Below, piece by piece: positions 2,871 through 52,428 of a stretch of DNA of 64,000 nucleotides. This DNA is from Methanosarcina sp. (GTDB lineage: Archaea > Halobacteriota > Methanosarcinia > Methanosarcinales > Methanosarcinaceae): NCBI RefSeq assembly GCF_028693135.1, contig NZ_JAQUVZ010000003.1, forward strand, positions 1 to 64,000, in the 5' to 3' direction. Under the pieces are notes generated by a model, which was not told where the DNA came from, ran no database searches, and saw only the letters and a list, made by a program, of their open reading frames with translations. The translations under genes and the position numbers were made by a program. How positions within the stretch are numbered: the first letter of the stretch is position 1; each line of letters begins with the position of its first letter.

Positions 2871-4622
2871 ATGAAAGCACTCATTATAGACGGTTATGTG
2901 GACGAACCCGCCTGCCTCGGGGTTCCTCCATACCTTTCTCCTTACGCTCGGTACATAGCAGGAGCTCTTAGAGAGCGCGGGCTTTCCGAAAACGAGATTC
3001 ACTACCTGACCATCGACACCCTGCGGGAAAACCCGCCCGGGGCTGGTGAACTTATAGGGAAGGCAGACCTTCTGATCATTATTGCAGGCATGACCGTGCC
3101 TGGAAAATACCTTCGGGCATCTCCGGTAACGCCTGGAGAGATTGAAACTATTTTTCAGGCTGCGAGCGGGGTAAAGGTCATAGGCGGCCCGATAAGGCTC
3201 GGTTTCAGTAGCGAAGGTGGTAGGGCTGCAAAGGGGACGGAAAGCGGGATAAGCCTGGGAGAAGCCGTGCTTGCAAAAATGGACATCGAGGCTTTTATTT
3301 ACGATCTTTTTGAGGACGGGACTGGCGGGAAAGGGAGCAGTGGAAGCAGTGGAAGCAGTGGAAGCAGTGGAAGCTTTCCTGCAAAGCTGAAAGCCCCGGA
3401 GTCCGTTGACCACCGATTCAGGACAACAGCCGAGATAGGGCGCTGGGGGTCTAAAGGGGCTTTTTTGATCCGGCAGCACCCGGACTACCCTTACTGCATG
3501 TGCGAGCTTGAAACCTACAGGGGCTGCGGCAGGCAGGTCCACTGCTCTTTCTGCACCGAGCCATTTTATGGGGCTTCGGACTACAGGCCTGTAGAGGATG
3601 TTATCTCCGAAGTCTCTGCACTTTATTCCCATGGAGCCCGCTATTTCAGACTAGGAAGGCAGCCTGACCTTTTTACTTACCACGGGACCGATGCCGGAGG
3701 GCCTGTTCCCAAACCCGTGCCTGAGGTCCTTGAAAGGCTTTACCGCGGAATCCGGTATTCCGCACCTGAGCTTTCCGTGCTTCACATGGACAACGCAAAC
3801 CCGATAACCCTTGCAACATACCCCGAAGAGTCAGAGCAGATTCTGAAGACAATTATCAAATATCATACCTCTGGAGATGTAGCAGCCTTTGGGATGGAGA
3901 CTGCTGACCCGAATGTGGTTGCAGCAAATTCCCTCAAGGCGACTTCCGAAGAAGTTTTTGAGGCGATCAAACTGGTAAACAGGCTTGGAGCCGTGCGCGG
4001 GGCAAATGGGCTTCCGGAAATTCTCCCGGGCATTAATTTTGTCCACGGGCTGATGGGGGAGACGAAAAAGACTTTCCAGCTGAACTACGATTTCCTGCAG
4101 CAGGTGCTTGATTCAGGGCTGCTTCTCCGAAGAATTAATATCCGGCAGGTCATGACATTTCCCGGAACTCCAATGTACGGTAGGGACGAAGCAACCAGGA
4201 AGCACAAGAAACTCTTTCTGGACTATAAGGAACAGGTCAGGAAGAACATCGACCTTCCAATGCTTCGGCGGGTCGTGCCGGAAGGAACGGTACTGAGAGA
4301 TGTAATGTGTGAGGTGCATGACAGAGGGATCACTTTCGGAAGGCAGCTTGGCTCTTATCCCCTGCTTGTGGGGGTTCCTGCCCTTCTTCCCCTGCGGAAG
4401 TTCACGGACATTACTGTCACAGGACACGGAATGCGTTCGATTACCGGAATTCCCAATCCCCTGCATATAAACACCGCATCTCTTGCCCTTATCCGGGAAA
4501 TTCCGGGCATCGGCAGAAAAGCGGCTGATTCTATAGCTGTCGGAATTCCCTATACTGACAGAGAGGATTTTCTAAAGAGGGTAAGTGAGGGAGAAAAAGT
4601 GATCAGTTTTATCGAAATCTGA
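2871..4622 (+). CDS. Radical SAM protein with C-terminal helix-hairpin-helix (COG1031 type)
   Basis: About 583 residues from the ATG at 2871 (MKALIIDGYVDEPACLG), chosen because AAAGGA lies upstream and the extra 20 residues from 2811 look unlike protein N-termini. N-terminal part resembles a B12-binding-like Rossmann segment. The radical SAM core has the cluster motif YRGCGRQVHCSFC, spaced CX5CX2C and not CX3CX2C. C-terminal residues IREIPGIGRKAADSIAVG form a helix-hairpin-helix, usually DNA or RNA binding. Matches the uncharacterised COG1031 group of archaeal Fe-S oxidoreductases; substrate unknown. An in-frame serine-glycine linker separates the N-terminal and radical SAM parts. Monocistronic by position. 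Confidence 0.85.
   Translation: MKALIIDGYVDEPACLGVPPYLSPYARYIAGALRERGLSENEIHYLTIDTLRENPPGAGELIGKADLLIIIAGMTVPGKYLRASPVTPGEIETIFQAASGVKVIGGPIRLGFSSEGGRAAKGTESGISLGEAVLAKMDIEAFIYDLFEDGTGGKGSSGSSGSSGSSGSFPAKLKAPESVDHRFRTTAEIGRWGSKGAFLIRQHPDYPYCMCELETYRGCGRQVHCSFCTEPFYGASDYRPVEDVISEVSALYSHGARYFRLGRQPDLFTYHGTDAGGPVPKPVPEVLERLYRGIRYSAPELSVLHMDNANPITLATYPEESEQILKTIIKYHTSGDVAAFGMETADPNVVAANSLKATSEEVFEAIKLVNRLGAVRGANGLPEILPGINFVHGLMGETKKTFQLNYDFLQQVLDSGLLLRRINIRQVMTFPGTPMYGRDEATRKHKKLFLDYKEQVRKNIDLPMLRRVVPEGTVLRDVMCEVHDRGITFGRQLGSYPLLVGVPALLPLRKFTDITVTGHGMRSITGIPNPLHINTASLALIREIPGIGRKAADSIAVGIPYTDREDFLKRVSEGEKVISFIEI
3333..3374 (+). repeat. 9-bp tandem repeat coding a Gly-Ser-Ser linker
   Basis: GGAAGCAGT repeated about four times in frame inside the radical SAM gene, coding (GSS)n between the N-terminal and radical SAM domains. 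The unit is a multiple of three, so copy-number change would keep the frame. Confidence 0.8.
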
Positions 4623-20436: not shown

Positions 20437-20563
20437 AAAAAAAAGCCATGAGAATAGTTTGTGAGCGGGCTTGGGGAGTTGGGGGGAATAGTTGGGGGAA
20501 TAGTTGGGGAATAGTTGGGGGATATGGGTTTGGGGTTATACTATGGAAAAGAGACCCGCTCAC
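20437..20563 (-). ncRNA. Candidate C-rich small RNA, copy A
   Basis: On the minus strand a transcript starting at 20563 would begin GTGAGCGGGTCTC, 24-31 nt downstream of a TATTTATA box, the usual archaeal distance. It contains repeated AACTATTCCCCC-like blocks and CCCCAACTCCCC, then CCCGCTCAC, which pairs perfectly over 9 bp with the 5' end, and ends in a run of eight T near 20437. Paired ends enclosing a C-rich, mostly unpaired middle would suit binding to G-rich ribosome sites. There is no coding frame. A homologous locus lies at 20856-20928. Predicted only from sequence. Confidence 0.6.
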
Positions 20564-20586
20564 TATGCATGAGTAATATTACATAC

Positions 20587-20594
20587 TATAAATA
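20587..20594 (-). promoter_or_regulatory. TATA box of candidate small RNA A
   Basis: TATTTATA on the minus strand, 24-31 nt upstream of the conserved GTGAGCGGG. Confidence 0.55.
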
Positions 20595-20855
20595 CCTTTC
20601 TATAAAATACATCGCAATATATAATTACAGTCTTATAGTTAATATATTCTCAAAATGTTCTTAAAAATAATATTTTTCTGGAACCCGTGCAGTCAGATAA
20701 TGGATTAATAACACTGGAAGAAGTACGGATAAGAAAGGATAGCACTTACTTGAGTATCAGCTAACCTTTGTAGATATATAATAATTTGTGGGCAATTAAC
20801 AATGCTTTTTGAACAGGTAATAATAAAATTAGTGTGAGATATTAATAGAATTAGT

Positions 20856-20928
20856 GTGAGCGAGTTGGGGAGTATGAATTGGGGTGTTGGGGGGTTGGGG
20901 TTATCTTACAAAAGAGAGACCCGCTCAC
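20856..20928 (-). ncRNA. Candidate C-rich small RNA, copy B
   Basis: Homolog of copy A: starts GTGAGCGGGTCTCTC, has an ACCCCAACCCCCCAACACCC block, and closes with CTCGCTCAC. The 5'/3' pairing is kept by a G-U wobble where copy A has G-C, which argues for RNA structure. A TATA box lies at 20951-20960, at the same distance as in copy A. No strong T run follows, so the 3' end is uncertain and may reach about 20820. Confidence 0.55.
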
Positions 20929-20950
20929 ATATTATATCAGGCTAATATTG

Positions 20951-20960
20951 TATAAATATA
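20951..20960 (-). promoter_or_regulatory. TATA box of candidate small RNA B
   Basis: TATATTTATA on the minus strand, 23-32 nt upstream of the conserved 5' end. Confidence 0.5.
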
Positions 20961-22802: not shown

Positions 22803-22985
22803 AGCCAAAACAGCCTTAATATCCATATATAATCCTTAAATGTCCCCCGGTTGGACTTAATATCTGCATTCATTACTTACTATCAAAACACAACAATTTA
22901 TATGCACATATTACGTTTATTTATTCAAAAGTTGTATGTTTTTTTTTCAGGATAATATTTTTCTAATGGAAAAGAAGGGGATTAT

Positions 22986-25280
22986 TTGATTGAGGGGGAT
23001 AAATCGATTGTAAAACTTAAGGTTGCAGAAGCCGATCAACGGGATGTCGGAAAAGGAATTATCCGAATTGACGAAAGATTCAGGGAGATACTGGGCCTGA
23101 AACCCTTTGATGTAGTGGAGATAAGAGGTGGAAAATCTACTTCTGCCCTTATAGGCCGTCCTTATCCCAGTGATGCCGGGCTTGATATTGTCCGTATGGA
23201 CGGACTTATCCGTACCAATGCAAAGACAAGCATAGGGGAATATGTGGAAATCCGGAAAGCCGAATGGAAAGAAGCAAAGCATGTTACCCTGTCTCCCGTT
23301 ACGAGGGGTATGCAGATCTTTGCTCCCAGTGAGACGCTCAGTGCGGTCTTCATGAACCGTACGGTTTCAAAAGGAGACTTTATCTCCACCACCAGCTTAA
23401 GGAAGTCCAGGGATAGAGATACTTCTAACAAGGGGCTCATGTTCGATGACTTTTTCCAGGACTTTTTCGGGCAGGGCTTTGGCCCCTCCTTCGGGCTTGG
23501 GGAAATCAAGCTGCAGGTCGTCTCTACATCCCCGACGGGGATCGTAAAGATCACGGACATGACAGAAATCGAACTCCTGCCAGAAGCCGTGGAAATTCCA
23601 CCTGAACAGATAATTCCTACTGTTATGTACGAAGATCTGGGTGGGCTCAAAGACGCCATTACAAAAGTCAGGGAAATGATAGAACTCCCCCTGAAACATC
23701 CTGAACTTTTTGACCGGCTTGGGATTGACGCCCCTAAAGGGGTGCTGCTCCACGGCCCTCCCGGAACGGGCAAGACCATGCTTGCAAAAGCAGTTGCAAA
23801 TGAGTCCGATGCTTATTTCATATCCATCAACGGCCCGGAAATAATGTCCAAATACTACGGAGAATCTGAAAAAGCGATCCGTGATATATTCGATGAGGCT
23901 GAAAAGAATGCCCCTGCAATTATCTTTCTGGATGAGATCGATTCCATTGCCCCAAAAAGAGCAGAGGTCACAGGGGAAGTAGAGAGAAGGGTGGTTGCCC
24001 AGCTTCTTTCCCTCATGGATGGCTTAAAAAGCCGCAAGAACGTGATCGTAATAGGCGCAACAAACCGCCCCGAAGCCCTGGACCTTGCACTGCGCCGCCC
24101 AGGCAGGTTTGACAGGGAAATAGAACTTCGGGTTCCTGACACCGAAGGCAGGCTTGAGATTTTCCAGATCCATACCAGGGGGATGCCTCTTACCGAGGAT
24201 GTAAACCTGAGGGACCTCGCCCAGATTACCTATGGGTTTGTGGGAGCTGACATTGCGGCACTTTGTCGGGAAGCTGCCATGAGTGCTCTTCGGCGTATCC
24301 TCCCTAAGCTCAATCTGAAAGAACCCCAGATCCCAAAAGAACTCCTGGATACCCTGCAGGTCACAAGAGCAGACTTCGAAGAGGCCATGAAAGAAGTCCA
24401 GCCTTCAGCCATTCGGGAAATCCTTATTGAGATTCCCAATGTCAGCTGGGACGATGTGGGAGGCTTAGAAGATGTAAAATGCCTCTTAAAAGAAGCCGTG
24501 GAATGGCCGCTTAAAAACCCTGAGTCTTACAGGGACATAGGAGTGGAAGCTCCAAAAGGCGTTCTCCTCTACGGGCCTCCGGGCACTGGAAAGACCCTTC
24601 TTGCAAAAGCTATTGCCCATGAATCCGATGCCAATTTCATCACAGCCAAAGGAAGCGACCTCCTCTCCAAGTGGTACGGGGAGTCCGAAAAGAGGATTGC
24701 CGAGGTCTTCATGCGGGCAAGGCAGGTTGCTCCTTCCATTGTTTTTCTGGATGAACTTGATTCTCTTGCTCCCATCCGTGGGATCTCCGCAGGAGAGCCA
24801 CAGGTTACAGCCCGGATCCTTAATCAGCTCCTTTCCGAAATGGACGGGCTCGAAGAGCTCCGGGGTGTGGTGGTGATTGGTGCAACCAACCGTCCTGATA
24901 TCATAGACCCGGCCCTGATCCGTCCAGGGCGCTTTGATGAACTTATCCTTGTGCCTATCCCGGATAAAGGGGCCCGGAGGGAAATCCTCAAGGTCCATAC
25001 AAAGAAGATGGCTCTTGCAGAGGATGTGGATATCGAAGAACTTGTTGACCTGACTGACCAGTACACAGGTGCAGATCTCGCAGCCATATGCAAAAAGGCA
25101 GGAAGGTATGCCCTGCGCGAAGAACTCCATGCAAAAAACGTCAAACAGAAACATTTCCTTAAAGCGATTGCAGATACAGGGCCTTCAGTTACTCCAGATA
25201 CCATGAAATATTATGAAGCTATTAAAGGCGAACTGAGGACCAAGAAGTCCAAGGAAATAGAAAACCCCTCTTATATCTAA
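22986..25280 (+). CDS. VAT/Cdc48-type AAA+ ATPase
   Basis: 764 residues. The N domain (VKLKVAEADQRDVGKGIIRI) is followed by two AAA modules: P-loops GPPGTGKT at about 257-264 and 530-537, Walker B IIFLDEIDS and IVFLDELDS, and second regions of homology ending RRPGRFD and IRPGRFD. A Gly/Phe-rich insertion (FDDFFQDFFGQGFGPSFGLG) in the N domain is unusual and gives some difference from Thermoplasma VAT. The hexamer unfolds proteins for degradation by the proteasome. TTG start at 22986 follows AAGAAGGGG. Monocistronic. Confidence 0.95.
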   Translation: MIEGDKSIVKLKVAEADQRDVGKGIIRIDERFREILGLKPFDVVEIRGGKSTSALIGRPYPSDAGLDIVRMDGLIRTNAKTSIGEYVEIRKAEWKEAKHVTLSPVTRGMQIFAPSETLSAVFMNRTVSKGDFISTTSLRKSRDRDTSNKGLMFDDFFQDFFGQGFGPSFGLGEIKLQVVSTSPTGIVKITDMTEIELLPEAVEIPPEQIIPTVMYEDLGGLKDAITKVREMIELPLKHPELFDRLGIDAPKGVLLHGPPGTGKTMLAKAVANESDAYFISINGPEIMSKYYGESEKAIRDIFDEAEKNAPAIIFLDEIDSIAPKRAEVTGEVERRVVAQLLSLMDGLKSRKNVIVIGATNRPEALDLALRRPGRFDREIELRVPDTEGRLEIFQIHTRGMPLTEDVNLRDLAQITYGFVGADIAALCREAAMSALRRILPKLNLKEPQIPKELLDTLQVTRADFEEAMKEVQPSAIREILIEIPNVSWDDVGGLEDVKCLLKEAVEWPLKNPESYRDIGVEAPKGVLLYGPPGTGKTLLAKAIAHESDANFITAKGSDLLSKWYGESEKRIAEVFMRARQVAPSIVFLDELDSLAPIRGISAGEPQVTARILNQLLSEMDGLEELRGVVVIGATNRPDIIDPALIRPGRFDELILVPIPDKGARREILKVHTKKMALAEDVDIEELVDLTDQYTGADLAAICKKAGRYALREELHAKNVKQKHFLKAIADTGPSVTPDTMKYYEAIKGELRTKKSKEIENPSYI

Positions 25281-35418: not shown

Positions 35419-35607
35419 TTTTAAGCCGCCAGAGCCTCATTTAATTCTGTATTCGTACTTTTATCCCAACCTTCACCCAACTTTTCTCCGAACATTTTTT
35501 TATTTTGAAGTACTTTTAAGATGTCAGTTGATTAAATAATTGTCTACTTGTCTATTTCAGGGATGTAATCAAAATTTAAACCAAACCGGGGATGAGTGGG
35601 ATTGCGA

Positions 35608-37041
35608 ATGTTAATCTTTATTCTGACAATCTTTATTATTTTTAGTGGATGCGTTGAAGAAAATAATCTCACTCAATCAAATGAGTCAGCATATCAAGGG
35701 CAAGCAAATATAACGCCGGAAAATCTTTCCTCAACAACCCTGTCATCCGAAGAGAAAAATATCCCTGAAATCGAAGTGACATCCTTTTCAAGCATTTATA
35801 TGCACGATAATTCAGAAAACGTATTAAATTACCTGTTTAGCTGGGATAATGTCCCGGGTAACGAAAGTAATAATCTCAGCAAATACCTCATGAATGATCT
35901 GGGGATTGATTGGGTAAGTAACGCGCAGATCGTTAAAACCGATGACAATAATACTATCCGTGTTTTTACTTCCAACAATTCTCTGGAGTTAAAGCTTGCA
36001 GACGATAAAAATACGGTTTTAATAACTCCCAATGACATTCGATTAAAAGTAAAAGAGGAAGATGGTAAGCTTTGCATATACAGAGTTAAAGAATACCGTG
36101 GTTCAAGTGATCCCACAGAAAGCAAGTTCGGATATAATCTCAATGAAAAGTATTACGCGGTATATGACCTTTCAATAAAGAATAATGGTTCAAAGAACCT
36201 CGATTTTAAATTAAACGAACTTCATGTACGTGATGGTAATCGTACATTTAATACTACAAATCTGGACCCTTACGGTTTTTATGAGAGATCACATCTGGAG
36301 GTGCTTTCAAGCCTCAAAGAAGAAAATAAAATTGAAAGTATGACTCTATCTCCCGGACAAACTATAAACGGATCTGTGGTTTTTCAGGTTAATTCGCTGT
36401 ACAATGAATCGTTTTTACTGATGTATAACGAAACTCTTATTTCCTCAGCCTCTTTAGAAAAAAGTATTGAAGCTTTAAAAGTTGCCGAACACTTCAATTA
36501 CTCAACGGTGTTTGGCATACCGCCTTATTCTGAAGACACTTCTGACTTTAATAGTGAAGGGGCTCCATTATTTTGCAGCTGGGCAAACAGAAGTGTATTT
36601 GAATTCTTCAATAAGGCAGATTCGGAGAACGTGATGAAACCTTCTCCCTACTCTCCCGATGGAATAAGCTGGACCAAAATTGTCTTTGCATTGGAAGTCA
36701 AACCTGAAAGAAACATAACAACGCTTCCAGTAAAAAATAGGGACTCACATACATACAGTCTTCTTGTTGTTGATGATGCCGGAGAGGAACTAATTAACAC
36801 ACACGAGATTGAAAAAATAGCATTTCTAAGAAATGGAACCTATCAGCACTATTCCAGAAATGATCAAGATTTTCCACAGATGAATTTAACTAACCACACA
36901 TTCGTTAGAACTTCATTTGAACGTACTTATGGCACTCATATGAATGTTTACGTTTCGATTGATAACCAGAATCTTATACTGGACGATGACCTGAATGCAA
37001 TTCTGGTAAGATATAGTGACGGAGGTTACCATTTCGTTTAA
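35608..37041 (+). CDS. Lipoprotein of unknown function in the RM locus
   Basis: About 477 residues from ATG 35608 (GTG 35596 is an alternative with poor spacing); GGGGATGA lies upstream. Lipobox IIFSGC, then a Thr/Ser/Asn-rich linker. A middle part (KYYAVYDLSIKNNGSKNLDF...LHVRDGNRTFNTT) resembles telokin-like Ig domains of the DUF4352 kind. Many NXS/NXT sites suit an extracellular glycoprotein. It is on the opposite strand to the hsd genes and separates hsdS from hsdR, so it is probably an insertion cargo and not part of the RM system. Confidence 0.65.
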   Translation: MLIFILTIFIIFSGCVEENNLTQSNESAYQGQANITPENLSSTTLSSEEKNIPEIEVTSFSSIYMHDNSENVLNYLFSWDNVPGNESNNLSKYLMNDLGIDWVSNAQIVKTDDNNTIRVFTSNNSLELKLADDKNTVLITPNDIRLKVKEEDGKLCIYRVKEYRGSSDPTESKFGYNLNEKYYAVYDLSIKNNGSKNLDFKLNELHVRDGNRTFNTTNLDPYGFYERSHLEVLSSLKEENKIESMTLSPGQTINGSVVFQVNSLYNESFLLMYNETLISSASLEKSIEALKVAEHFNYSTVFGIPPYSEDTSDFNSEGAPLFCSWANRSVFEFFNKADSENVMKPSPYSPDGISWTKIVFALEVKPERNITTLPVKNRDSHTYSLLVVDDAGEELINTHEIEKIAFLRNGTYQHYSRNDQDFPQMNLTNHTFVRTSFERTYGTHMNVYVSIDNQNLILDDDLNAILVRYSDGGYHFV

Positions 37042-51352: not shown

Positions 51353-51699
51353 TATACTGTTTTAATATAATGATAAATGAACACAAGTAAAAGTCTGGTT
51401 TTTAAAAAGTCTTGTTTTTTCTCTGTTACTGTAATTCTCTGTTCCTGTAATTATGTTCCTGTAATTCTCTGTTCCTGTAATTCTCTGTTCCTGTAATTTT
51501 TGCAGGCACCTGCTTTTCTGGCAACTTTCTTTATTTTTTCAGGAAAAAATATATCAGTTGAAACATAATATACTAAAATGGAAACTTACTTTTTATAGTA
51601 AGTTCAAGATTAACTTACTTTAATTGATGAGAAACTATTCGCGTTTAATAGAAACCTATCGTGCTTAAATATGTAATAGTATGGAGGGTATGTGATCGT
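51353..51699. other. Intergenic region with TTCCTGTAATTCTCTG repeats
   Basis: A 16-bp unit CTGTTCCTGTAATTCT recurs about four times at 51424-51500. The rest is AT-rich promoter sequence for the KaiC-like gene (ATAGTAAGTTCAAGATTAAC region). No gene seen. Confidence 0.55.
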
Positions 51700-52428
51700 A
51701 TGGAGATTTTGTCTACTGGAGTAAAAGGGTTGGATTTGCTGATGGATGGGGGGTATCCTAAAGGAAAGAGTATTCTGGTCACCGGTCCTCCTGGTTCGGG
51801 AAAAACCATCCTCGAAATTCATTTTCTGCACAGGAGTTGCCAGGAAGGCAAAAAATGCATACTTGTTCTTACCAGAGAGCTTACTGAAGACATACTCACT
51901 CAGGCCCGAAGCCTCAATCTTAACCTGGAGCCTTTCCTTGAGAACGGCCAGCTGAGTATCAGGAATATATTCGAAGACAAGATTAACAAGCTCAAAAGTG
52001 TTTCAAAATTCGGAAAAGGGCTCTGTGCCGTGGATGCGGATATACTCGAATATCTGAGCTCCATGTCTTCGGAAGTTGATGTTGTGATCATTGACAACAT
52101 CGGAGTAATGGCTATACATCACGATATAAGAGAGTTTGCAGATGAGTTCAGTTCGATAAGCATAATCCTCCTGAAAAACGGATGTACAAGCCTCTTTATA
52201 ATGGATGAGGATTCTTACGAGCTGACCCACAAGCTTACAGGTTACATGGTTTTCGGGTTGATTAGACTCATAACACAGGAAAATTTCAGTTCTGGAAAAA
52301 CAAAGCAGTATCTCTACATTGAAAAAATGAGAAATACTCCAGTCCCGGTCAAATATTCCCTGTTTGACATTACTTCGCAGGGAATTAGAGTTATCTCAGG
52401 CATAGGCCAGAAATCACTCGACAAGTGA
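51700..52428 (+). CDS. KaiC-like RecA-fold ATPase (single domain), copy 1
   Basis: 242 residues from ATG 51700 (MEILSTGVKGLDLLMDGGYP); GGAGG lies 11 nt upstream, so I prefer it to GTG 51661. P-loop GPPGSGKT (29-36), then HFLHRSCQEGKKCILVLTRE and Walker B-like VDVVIIDNIG. Single-domain KaiC/GvpD-like ATPases in methanogens often pair with response regulators and output to taxis or gene control. The ATPase at 53643-54365 is a paralog (same HRSCQEGKKC signature). Two mobile-element remnants separate the two loci. Specific role unknown. Confidence 0.85.
   Translation: MEILSTGVKGLDLLMDGGYPKGKSILVTGPPGSGKTILEIHFLHRSCQEGKKCILVLTRELTEDILTQARSLNLNLEPFLENGQLSIRNIFEDKINKLKSVSKFGKGLCAVDADILEYLSSMSSEVDVVIIDNIGVMAIHHDIREFADEFSSISIILLKNGCTSLFIMDEDSYELTHKLTGYMVFGLIRLITQENFSSGKTKQYLYIEKMRNTPVPVKYSLFDITSQGIRVISGIGQKSLDK

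What the first reader, a model, noticed from the sequence alone, without database searches (positions are those of the whole stretch)
20437..20960. Pair of homologous candidate small RNAs with paired ends and C-rich loops
Two minus-strand loci 365 bp apart share GTGAGCGGGTCTC at the 5' side, a C-rich middle and a 3' complement that closes the RNA. The pairing is perfect in A (CCCGCTCAC) and kept by one G-U wobble in B (CTCGCTCAC). Both have a TATA box at the same 23-32 nt distance. Copy A ends in eight T. Repeated CCCC-AACTATT blocks look like several binding sites for G-rich ribosome sites, as reported for some methanogen sRNAs that mask Shine-Dalgarno sequences.
Basis: partly seen in the sequence, partly recalled or inferred. 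Interest (0 to 1): 0.8.

Follow-up and report, generated by a model that had tools for sequence, protein, structure and literature searches.

The report
Class-wide C-rich lasso small RNA family
The two spots are genes for small non-coding RNAs that belong to a family, absent from the Rfam catalogue, found in nearly every genome of the methane-making class Methanosarcinia, in which a base-paired stem ties the two ends together and holds out a single-stranded, C-rich loop that is probably a landing site for an unidentified partner.

Summary
Copies A (20461-20563, minus) and B (20856-20928, minus) each have an archaeal TATA box, a 10-bp stem joining the two ends, and a single-stranded U-then-C-rich loop. 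Both are conserved at this place across Methanosarcina; conservation starts at the TATA box and stops at the stem. A third paralog (C) is 99% conserved. A covariance model finds relatives in 150 of 151 good genomes of the class (usually 1-5 per genome, up to 15) and in none of about 280 sampled genomes of other classes of the phylum. The stem shows compensatory changes at 6 of 10 pairs (0/500 shuffles). The class-wide loop core is CUAACCCCCACUCCCCA. Searching with part of that core alone finds more RNA genes whose closing stems differ in sequence but are also complementary. Rfam has no match. Best guess: an RNA that displays repeated C-tracts to a C-tract-binding partner, probably a protein. 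No expression data were available, and overlap with published M. mazei sRNA lists that I could not read cannot be excluded.

The parts
20461..20563 (-). small RNA gene, copy A (103 nt as bounded by the closing stem)
   Evidence: sequence; fold; homologs; model hit 79.2 bits
20554..20563 (-). 5' arm of closing stem of A, GTGAGCGGGT
   Evidence: covariation
20461..20470 (-). 3' arm of closing stem of A, GCCCGCTCAC
   Evidence: covariation
20471..20553 (-). single-stranded loop of A: U-run (CTCTTTTCC), ATAACCCC, then CCCCAACTATT-type units whose number varies between species (2 to about 10)
20587..20594 (-). TATA box of A (TATTTATA, -31 to -24)
   Evidence: conserved at 0.81 in the -45..-20 block
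20437..20444 (-). T8 run downstream of A, possible U-rich terminator
   Evidence: T-rich but variable in relatives; termination not tested
20856..20928 (-). small RNA gene, copy B (73 nt)
   Evidence: model hit 81.3 bits
20919..20928 (-). 5' arm of closing stem of B
20856..20865 (-). 3' arm of closing stem of B, ACTCGCTCAC (one G-U pair)
20866..20918 (-). C-rich loop of B: U-run, ATAACCCCAACCCCCCAACACCCCAATTCATACTCCCCA
20951..20958 (-). TATA box of B (TATTTATA, -30 to -23)

Best explanation
A and B are genes of a class-wide family of free-standing small non-coding RNAs. Shown by sequence: each has its own TATA promoter; the two ends pair into a stem of about 10 bp; the loop is predicted single-stranded and made of a U-run followed by one or more C-tracts (class core CUAACCCCCACUCCCCA). 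Inferred: the stem guards the ends and presents the loop; the loop is a docking array for a C-tract-binding partner, more likely a protein (KH/PCBP-type binding is the analogy, with an Lsm protein possibly on the U-run) than a single mRNA. The RNA would act by binding or titrating that partner. I put about 0.95 on this being a genuine structured ncRNA family and about 0.4 on the protein-docking mechanism; the confidence given is for the whole statement.
For: Conservation block runs from the TATA box to the stem end. TATA of 7/8 or better at -36..-26 in 75 of 138 members against 14 in a control window and 15 on the opposite strand, so the C-rich strand is the transcript. Compensatory changes at 6 of 10 stem pairs on a MAFFT alignment not fitted to the model, 0/500 shuffles, and again on wider sets. 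Members in 150/151 good class genomes; none among sampled genomes outside the class. The loop core is more constant than the stem: an 11-letter piece of the core alone finds further RNA genes with different but complementary stems, which is what a binding site presented by a generic stem would give. Loop units vary in number: A 2 to about 10, B 1 to 3, CCCCACTCCCACACTAA 2 to 3, easy to explain by multivalent docking. U-run of 4 or more before the C-tracts in 128 of 138. Loops not tuned to start regions or rRNA. Exact core matches outside these RNAs are few.
Against: No transcript or protein partner has been observed. No partner candidate was identified; the protein side is an argument by elimination plus analogy. 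The pairing test covered 494 predicted genes of one genome with approximate start calls, so a few specific mRNA targets would escape it; the C/E core has a mild excess of very strong sites (29 against 17 +/- 6). A nearly invariant 14-nt core could equally be an antisense seed. Copy A's units (CCCCAACTATT) differ from the class core, so not all loops need have one partner.
Confidence: 0.42

Rival explanations
1. Trans-acting antisense sRNA: the C-tracts pair with G-rich stretches of mRNAs, above all around ribosome-binding sites, and block translation.
For: Precedent in the genus (PMC5867862). The loops are single-stranded and C-rich. cdc48, near the pair, has a G-rich start region in five species that lies in the top 0.4-8% of start regions for pairing with the class core. 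The C/E core has a mild excess of strong sites.
Against: Average pairing with start regions is no better than composition shuffles and for the A unit worse. Neighbouring rfcL, HTH_45 and FMN_red start regions do not stand out. ACDS operon ribosome sites do not stand out for the C loop. Exact core complements outside the family are few and none seen is conserved. cdc48 was found post hoc.
Confidence: 0.3
2. Housekeeping or RNA-repair RNP RNA, Y-RNA-like in architecture: the stem-closed RNA is a scaffold for an RNA quality-control or repair protein; some members may be ligated into circles because the stem brings the ends together.
For: Stem-closed, pyrimidine-rich loop architecture. Member E stands 185-277 nt upstream of a CoA-disulfide-reductase-like gene that is followed by rtcA (RNA 3'-phosphate cyclase) in Methanosarcina; in other families of the order a family member stands upstream of rtcA (95 and 831 nt) or of the reductase (94 and 63 nt).
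Against: No TROVE/Ro60 protein in this genome. The rtcA link holds for member E only; A, B, C and G lie elsewhere. No evidence of circles.
Confidence: 0.12
3. Leader or attenuator element: the RNA is a cis-acting 5' UTR structure of a downstream gene.
For: Member E and its relatives lie 63-277 nt upstream of a same-strand gene in six of the seven loci looked at.
Against: A and B have no same-strand gene close downstream; rfcL is convergent. C, G and the copies in L104 and L105 are also free-standing. Loop and stem are conserved whatever the neighbour.
Confidence: 0.06
4. Short leaderless protein-coding gene beginning at the GTG of GTGAGC, or a repeat artefact.
For: A 73-codon ORF starts exactly at 20563 in this genome.
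Against: Homologous A and B copies differ by lengths that are not multiples of three; the frame shifts within the loop and stops appear early in B. Loci are orthologous, not mobile.
Confidence: 0.02

Closest known systems
Methanosarcina mazei sRNA41 (and sRNA154), RBS-masking sRNAs
   Same: Small non-coding RNAs of the same genus, proposed to act through loops on ribosome-binding sites; a member of this family could even be one of the numbered M. mazei sRNAs (not checkable here).
   Different: ACDS ribosome sites are not specially complementary to the C loop. sRNA154 is described with two stem-loops, not a single closing stem. The sRNA41 sequence could not be read.
Y RNA / Ro60 RNP and bacterial rtcBA RNA-repair operons
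   Same: Ends paired in a stem around a pyrimidine-rich loop; one member is linked to rtcA.
   Different: No TROVE protein in the genome; link to rtcA only for member E. The Y RNA features are from general knowledge, not tested against a model beyond Rfam's own scan.
CsrB/RsmZ-type protein-titrating sRNAs
   Same: Several copies of a short single-stranded motif whose number varies between species.
   Different: Motif is CCCCA-type, not GGA; partner protein unknown; one closing stem instead of many hairpins.
Cold-induced conserved sRNAs of Methanolobus psychrophilus (PMC5378194)
   Same: Nine highly conserved sRNAs with a common upstream motif in a related methanogen.
   Different: Sequences are in a supplement that could not be read; identity with this family neither shown nor excluded.

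Membership tests
Any Rfam family | Score above the family's gathering threshold | tested here: not met
   only tRNAs in the window, none over the RNA loci
The family defined here (closing stem plus U-run plus C-tract loop) | Covarying closing stem of about 10 bp joining the two ends | tested here: met
The family defined here (closing stem plus U-run plus C-tract loop) | TATA box about 24-32 nt upstream of the stem | tested here: met
   A and B exactly; 75 of 138 members against 14-15 in controls
The family defined here (closing stem plus U-run plus C-tract loop) | Transcribed as a discrete RNA | not testable with these tools
   no RNA-seq available
RBS-masking sRNA (sRNA41-like) | Loop complementary to ribosome-binding sites of the ACDS operon | tested here: not met
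RBS-masking sRNA (sRNA41-like) | Loop pairs with start regions better than composition shuffles | tested here: not met
   494 predicted genes of one relative; individual targets such as cdc48 not excluded
RBS-masking sRNA (sRNA41-like) | Identity with the published sRNA41 sequence or locus | not testable with these tools
   paper not held
Y RNA | Ends paired into a stem | tested here: met
Y RNA | Ro60/TROVE protein encoded in the genome | tested here: not met
CsrB-like sponge | Repeated GGA motifs in loops | tested here: not met
   loops are nearly free of G
CsrB-like sponge | A CsrA protein partner | not tested
   CsrA was not searched
Box C/D guide RNA | RUGAUGA and CUGA boxes next to the terminal stem | tested here: not met
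   by inspection of A and B
Small protein gene | Reading frame kept between homologs | tested here: not met

The most novel reading that the evidence does not exclude
Methanosarcinia share a class-specific RNP system: several stem-closed RNAs per genome, all displaying CUAACCCCCACUCCCCA-type tracts to an unknown, class-specific C-tract-binding protein whose activity they collect or buffer. Independent stem families (GUGAGCGGG, UGAACGAGCGAG, GGGCAUCUGA) carry the same loop signal.
Probability: 0.35. Interest if true: 0.85.

Novelty: new variant of a known kind. Interest (0 to 1): 0.7.

Why it matters
An RNA family kept in nearly every genome of a whole class of archaea that includes the Methanosarcina methanogens, usually several copies per genome, with a nearly invariant 14-nt single-stranded core, is under strong selection and yet missing from Rfam. 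The class includes genetically tractable models (Methanosarcina), so the partner can be looked for directly. It offers a handle on post-transcriptional control in archaea, where few sRNA systems are understood, and a ready class-level marker.

Tried and rejected
Protein-coding reading of copy A (frame not kept). rRNA as target: best duplexes of the core with 23S, the 3' part of 16S and flanks are within the shuffle range. ACDS operon as target for the C loop; the genomic nearness of paralog C to the ACDS genes (about 25-35 kb) was noted but is no test. Ro60/Y RNA membership (no TROVE protein). Perfect core complements as conserved mRNA targets: the hits turned out to be other members of the family or isolated sites in coding sequence. 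G-rich opposite strand as the transcript: no promoter signal. Weak model hits elsewhere in the window (51692-51782, 35592-35676) looked at and dismissed as chance. Text search for the stem sequences in open papers found nothing in Methanosarcina. A 16S pattern search found nothing, so the pattern probably did not fit.

Full report
1. What is there. On the minus strand, copy A (20461-20563) and copy B (20856-20928) begin with GTGAGCGGGTCTC and end with CCCGCTCAC and CTCGCTCAC. TATTTATA stands at -31..-24 of A and -30..-23 of B, where an archaeal TATA box should be if transcription begins at the first base of the stem. Folding gives one closing stem of 10 bp; the loop is unpaired in A and nearly so in B; z-scores are -5.5 and -3.4. 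In the 64-kb window a mechanical scan finds only these two loci of this shape, plus one larger hairpin that encloses A. Neither locus matches Rfam.

2. Conservation in the genus. A nucleotide search of 60 relatives finds the pair in most same-genus genomes. The genus is Methanosarcina: contigs of same-genus genomes have the lengths of named Methanosarcina records, for example 305011 and 881401 bases. A third paralog, C (own genome contig 41, 30072-30144), appears at one further locus in 20 genomes fetched. Mean pairwise identity across species is 0.83, 0.94 and 0.99 within A, B and C, is 0.75-0.96 over the TATA block, and falls to 0.28-0.59 upstream of it and 0.29-0.67 downstream of the stem. 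Homologous copies differ in length by numbers that are not multiples of three, and the frame is not kept: they are non-coding.

3. A class-wide family. A covariance model of 48 genus and near-genus sequences finds matches in 166 of 186 genomes of the order. A second model from 23 diverse members finds matches in 187 of 192 genomes of the class, 150 of 151 good ones, 33 of 36 genera, up to 15 in one genome. In an even sample of the phylum (391 genomes) all 104 genomes with a match belong to the class; none of the roughly 280 others has one. The sharp boundary is also a control on false positives. The class and phylum groupings are the tool's; the class name Methanosarcinia follows from the genus.

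4. Stem and loop. On alignments fitted to the models the stem has changes on both sides at 6 of 10 pairs, 15 and 32 cells. On a MAFFT alignment not fitted to the model it is again 6 of 10 pairs, 12 cells, 98.7% of cells paired, 0/500 shuffles, and slid versions fall to 26-50%. Examples: TTGCGCGGG..CCCGCGCAT, ACGAGCGGG..CCCGCTCGT, ATAAGCGGG..CCCGCTTAT. A bias remains because members were collected with a model that rewards the stem. The independent evidence is this: searching only for an 11-letter piece of the loop core (complement GGGAGTGGGGG) in ten genomes found further loci which turned out to be RNA-gene-like loci with closing stems of other sequence, TGAACGAGCGAG..CTCGCTCGTTCA (E), GGGCATCTGA..TCAGATGCCC (G), both with a TATA box, and TAGCGCCCTTTCAA..TTGAAAGGGCGCTA (F; no box by the scan's rule). 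E is present in 29 of 31 genus genomes. In 1.2 Mb of one relative the shape scan finds four TATA-preceded loci (A, B, E, G) and five chance loci without a box. The class consensus is [RYRAGCGGGU]-U-run-CUAACCCCCACUCCCCA-[ACCCGCUYRY].

5. Promoter and strand. Of 138 members, 75 have a TATA box of 7/8 or better at -36..-26, against 14 in a control window and 15 at the mirrored place on the other strand: the C-rich strand is transcribed. U-runs of four or more precede the C-tracts in 128 of 138.

6. How it might work. (a) Masking of ribosome sites. In 494 predicted genes of one relative the loops pair with start regions no better than composition shuffles (B, C) or worse (A unit); the core shows only a mild excess of very strong sites; the true anti-SD sequence behaves as a positive control. 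ACDS operon start regions do not stand out. Of four neighbours tested, only cdc48 has a G-rich start region; in five species it lies in the top 0.4-8% for the core. This is post hoc and is a candidate, not support. (b) rRNA pairing: not above shuffles. (c) Docking of a C-tract-binding partner. The loop core is kept while stem sequence, neighbourhood and unit number change; units multiply in A (2 to about 10), in B (up to 3) and in copies of a related genus (2 to 3). This fits a multivalent binding site best, though no partner is known. (d) RNA repair: member E stands upstream of a CoA-disulfide-reductase-like gene followed by rtcA in Methanosarcina, and members in other families of the order stand upstream of rtcA or of the reductase; no TROVE protein exists in this genome. 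I put (c) first at about 0.4, (a) at 0.3 and (d) at about 0.1.

7. Literature. sRNA41 and sRNA154 of M. mazei are reported to mask ribosome sites (PMC5867862; PMC11456600). Neither the sRNA41 paper nor the 2009 sRNA list is held, so I cannot say whether a member of this family has already been given a number there. A search of open papers for the stem sequences gave nothing in Methanosarcina. Methanolobus psychrophilus has nine conserved cold-induced sRNAs (PMC5378194) whose sequences could not be read.

8. Verdict. Observation confirmed; interpretation half right. The pair belongs to a real, class-wide, structured RNA family that Rfam does not contain. The mechanism is open.

Noticed in passing
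window 20863 and L035:2137-2145 (paralog C, own genome): B and C of this genome both carry the same C-to-T change in the 3' arm (CTCGCTCAC, a G-U pair), while nearly all other genomes have CCCGCTCA; gene conversion or coincidence.
   Followed up: no
L026:761-920; L118:3570-3672: Copy A in one relative is expanded to 160 nt with many CCCCAACTATT/CCCCAACATT units; copy B in L118 is expanded with repeats of CCCCAATTCATACT.
   Followed up: partly
L235:4432-4495, L115:2993-3043, L263, L262, L264: Member E of the family is in conserved neighbourhood with a CoA-disulfide-reductase-like gene and rtcA across families of the order.
   Followed up: partly
window 22941-23000: The start region of cdc48 (TTG start) is G-rich in five species and could pair with the loops of A, B and C.
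   Followed up: partly
L241:2970-3051 and 3778-3853; L248; L249: A GGGCATC-stemmed subfamily (G) occurs as neighbouring pairs in some genomes, like A and B here.
   Followed up: no
L068:8748-9080: A 110-aa minus-strand fragment resembling H+-pyrophosphatase lies between paralog C and a full-length H+-pyrophosphatase gene.
   Followed up: no
L281 (genome G105): One genome of another family of the order has 15 family hits, with three close together in one locus.
   Followed up: no
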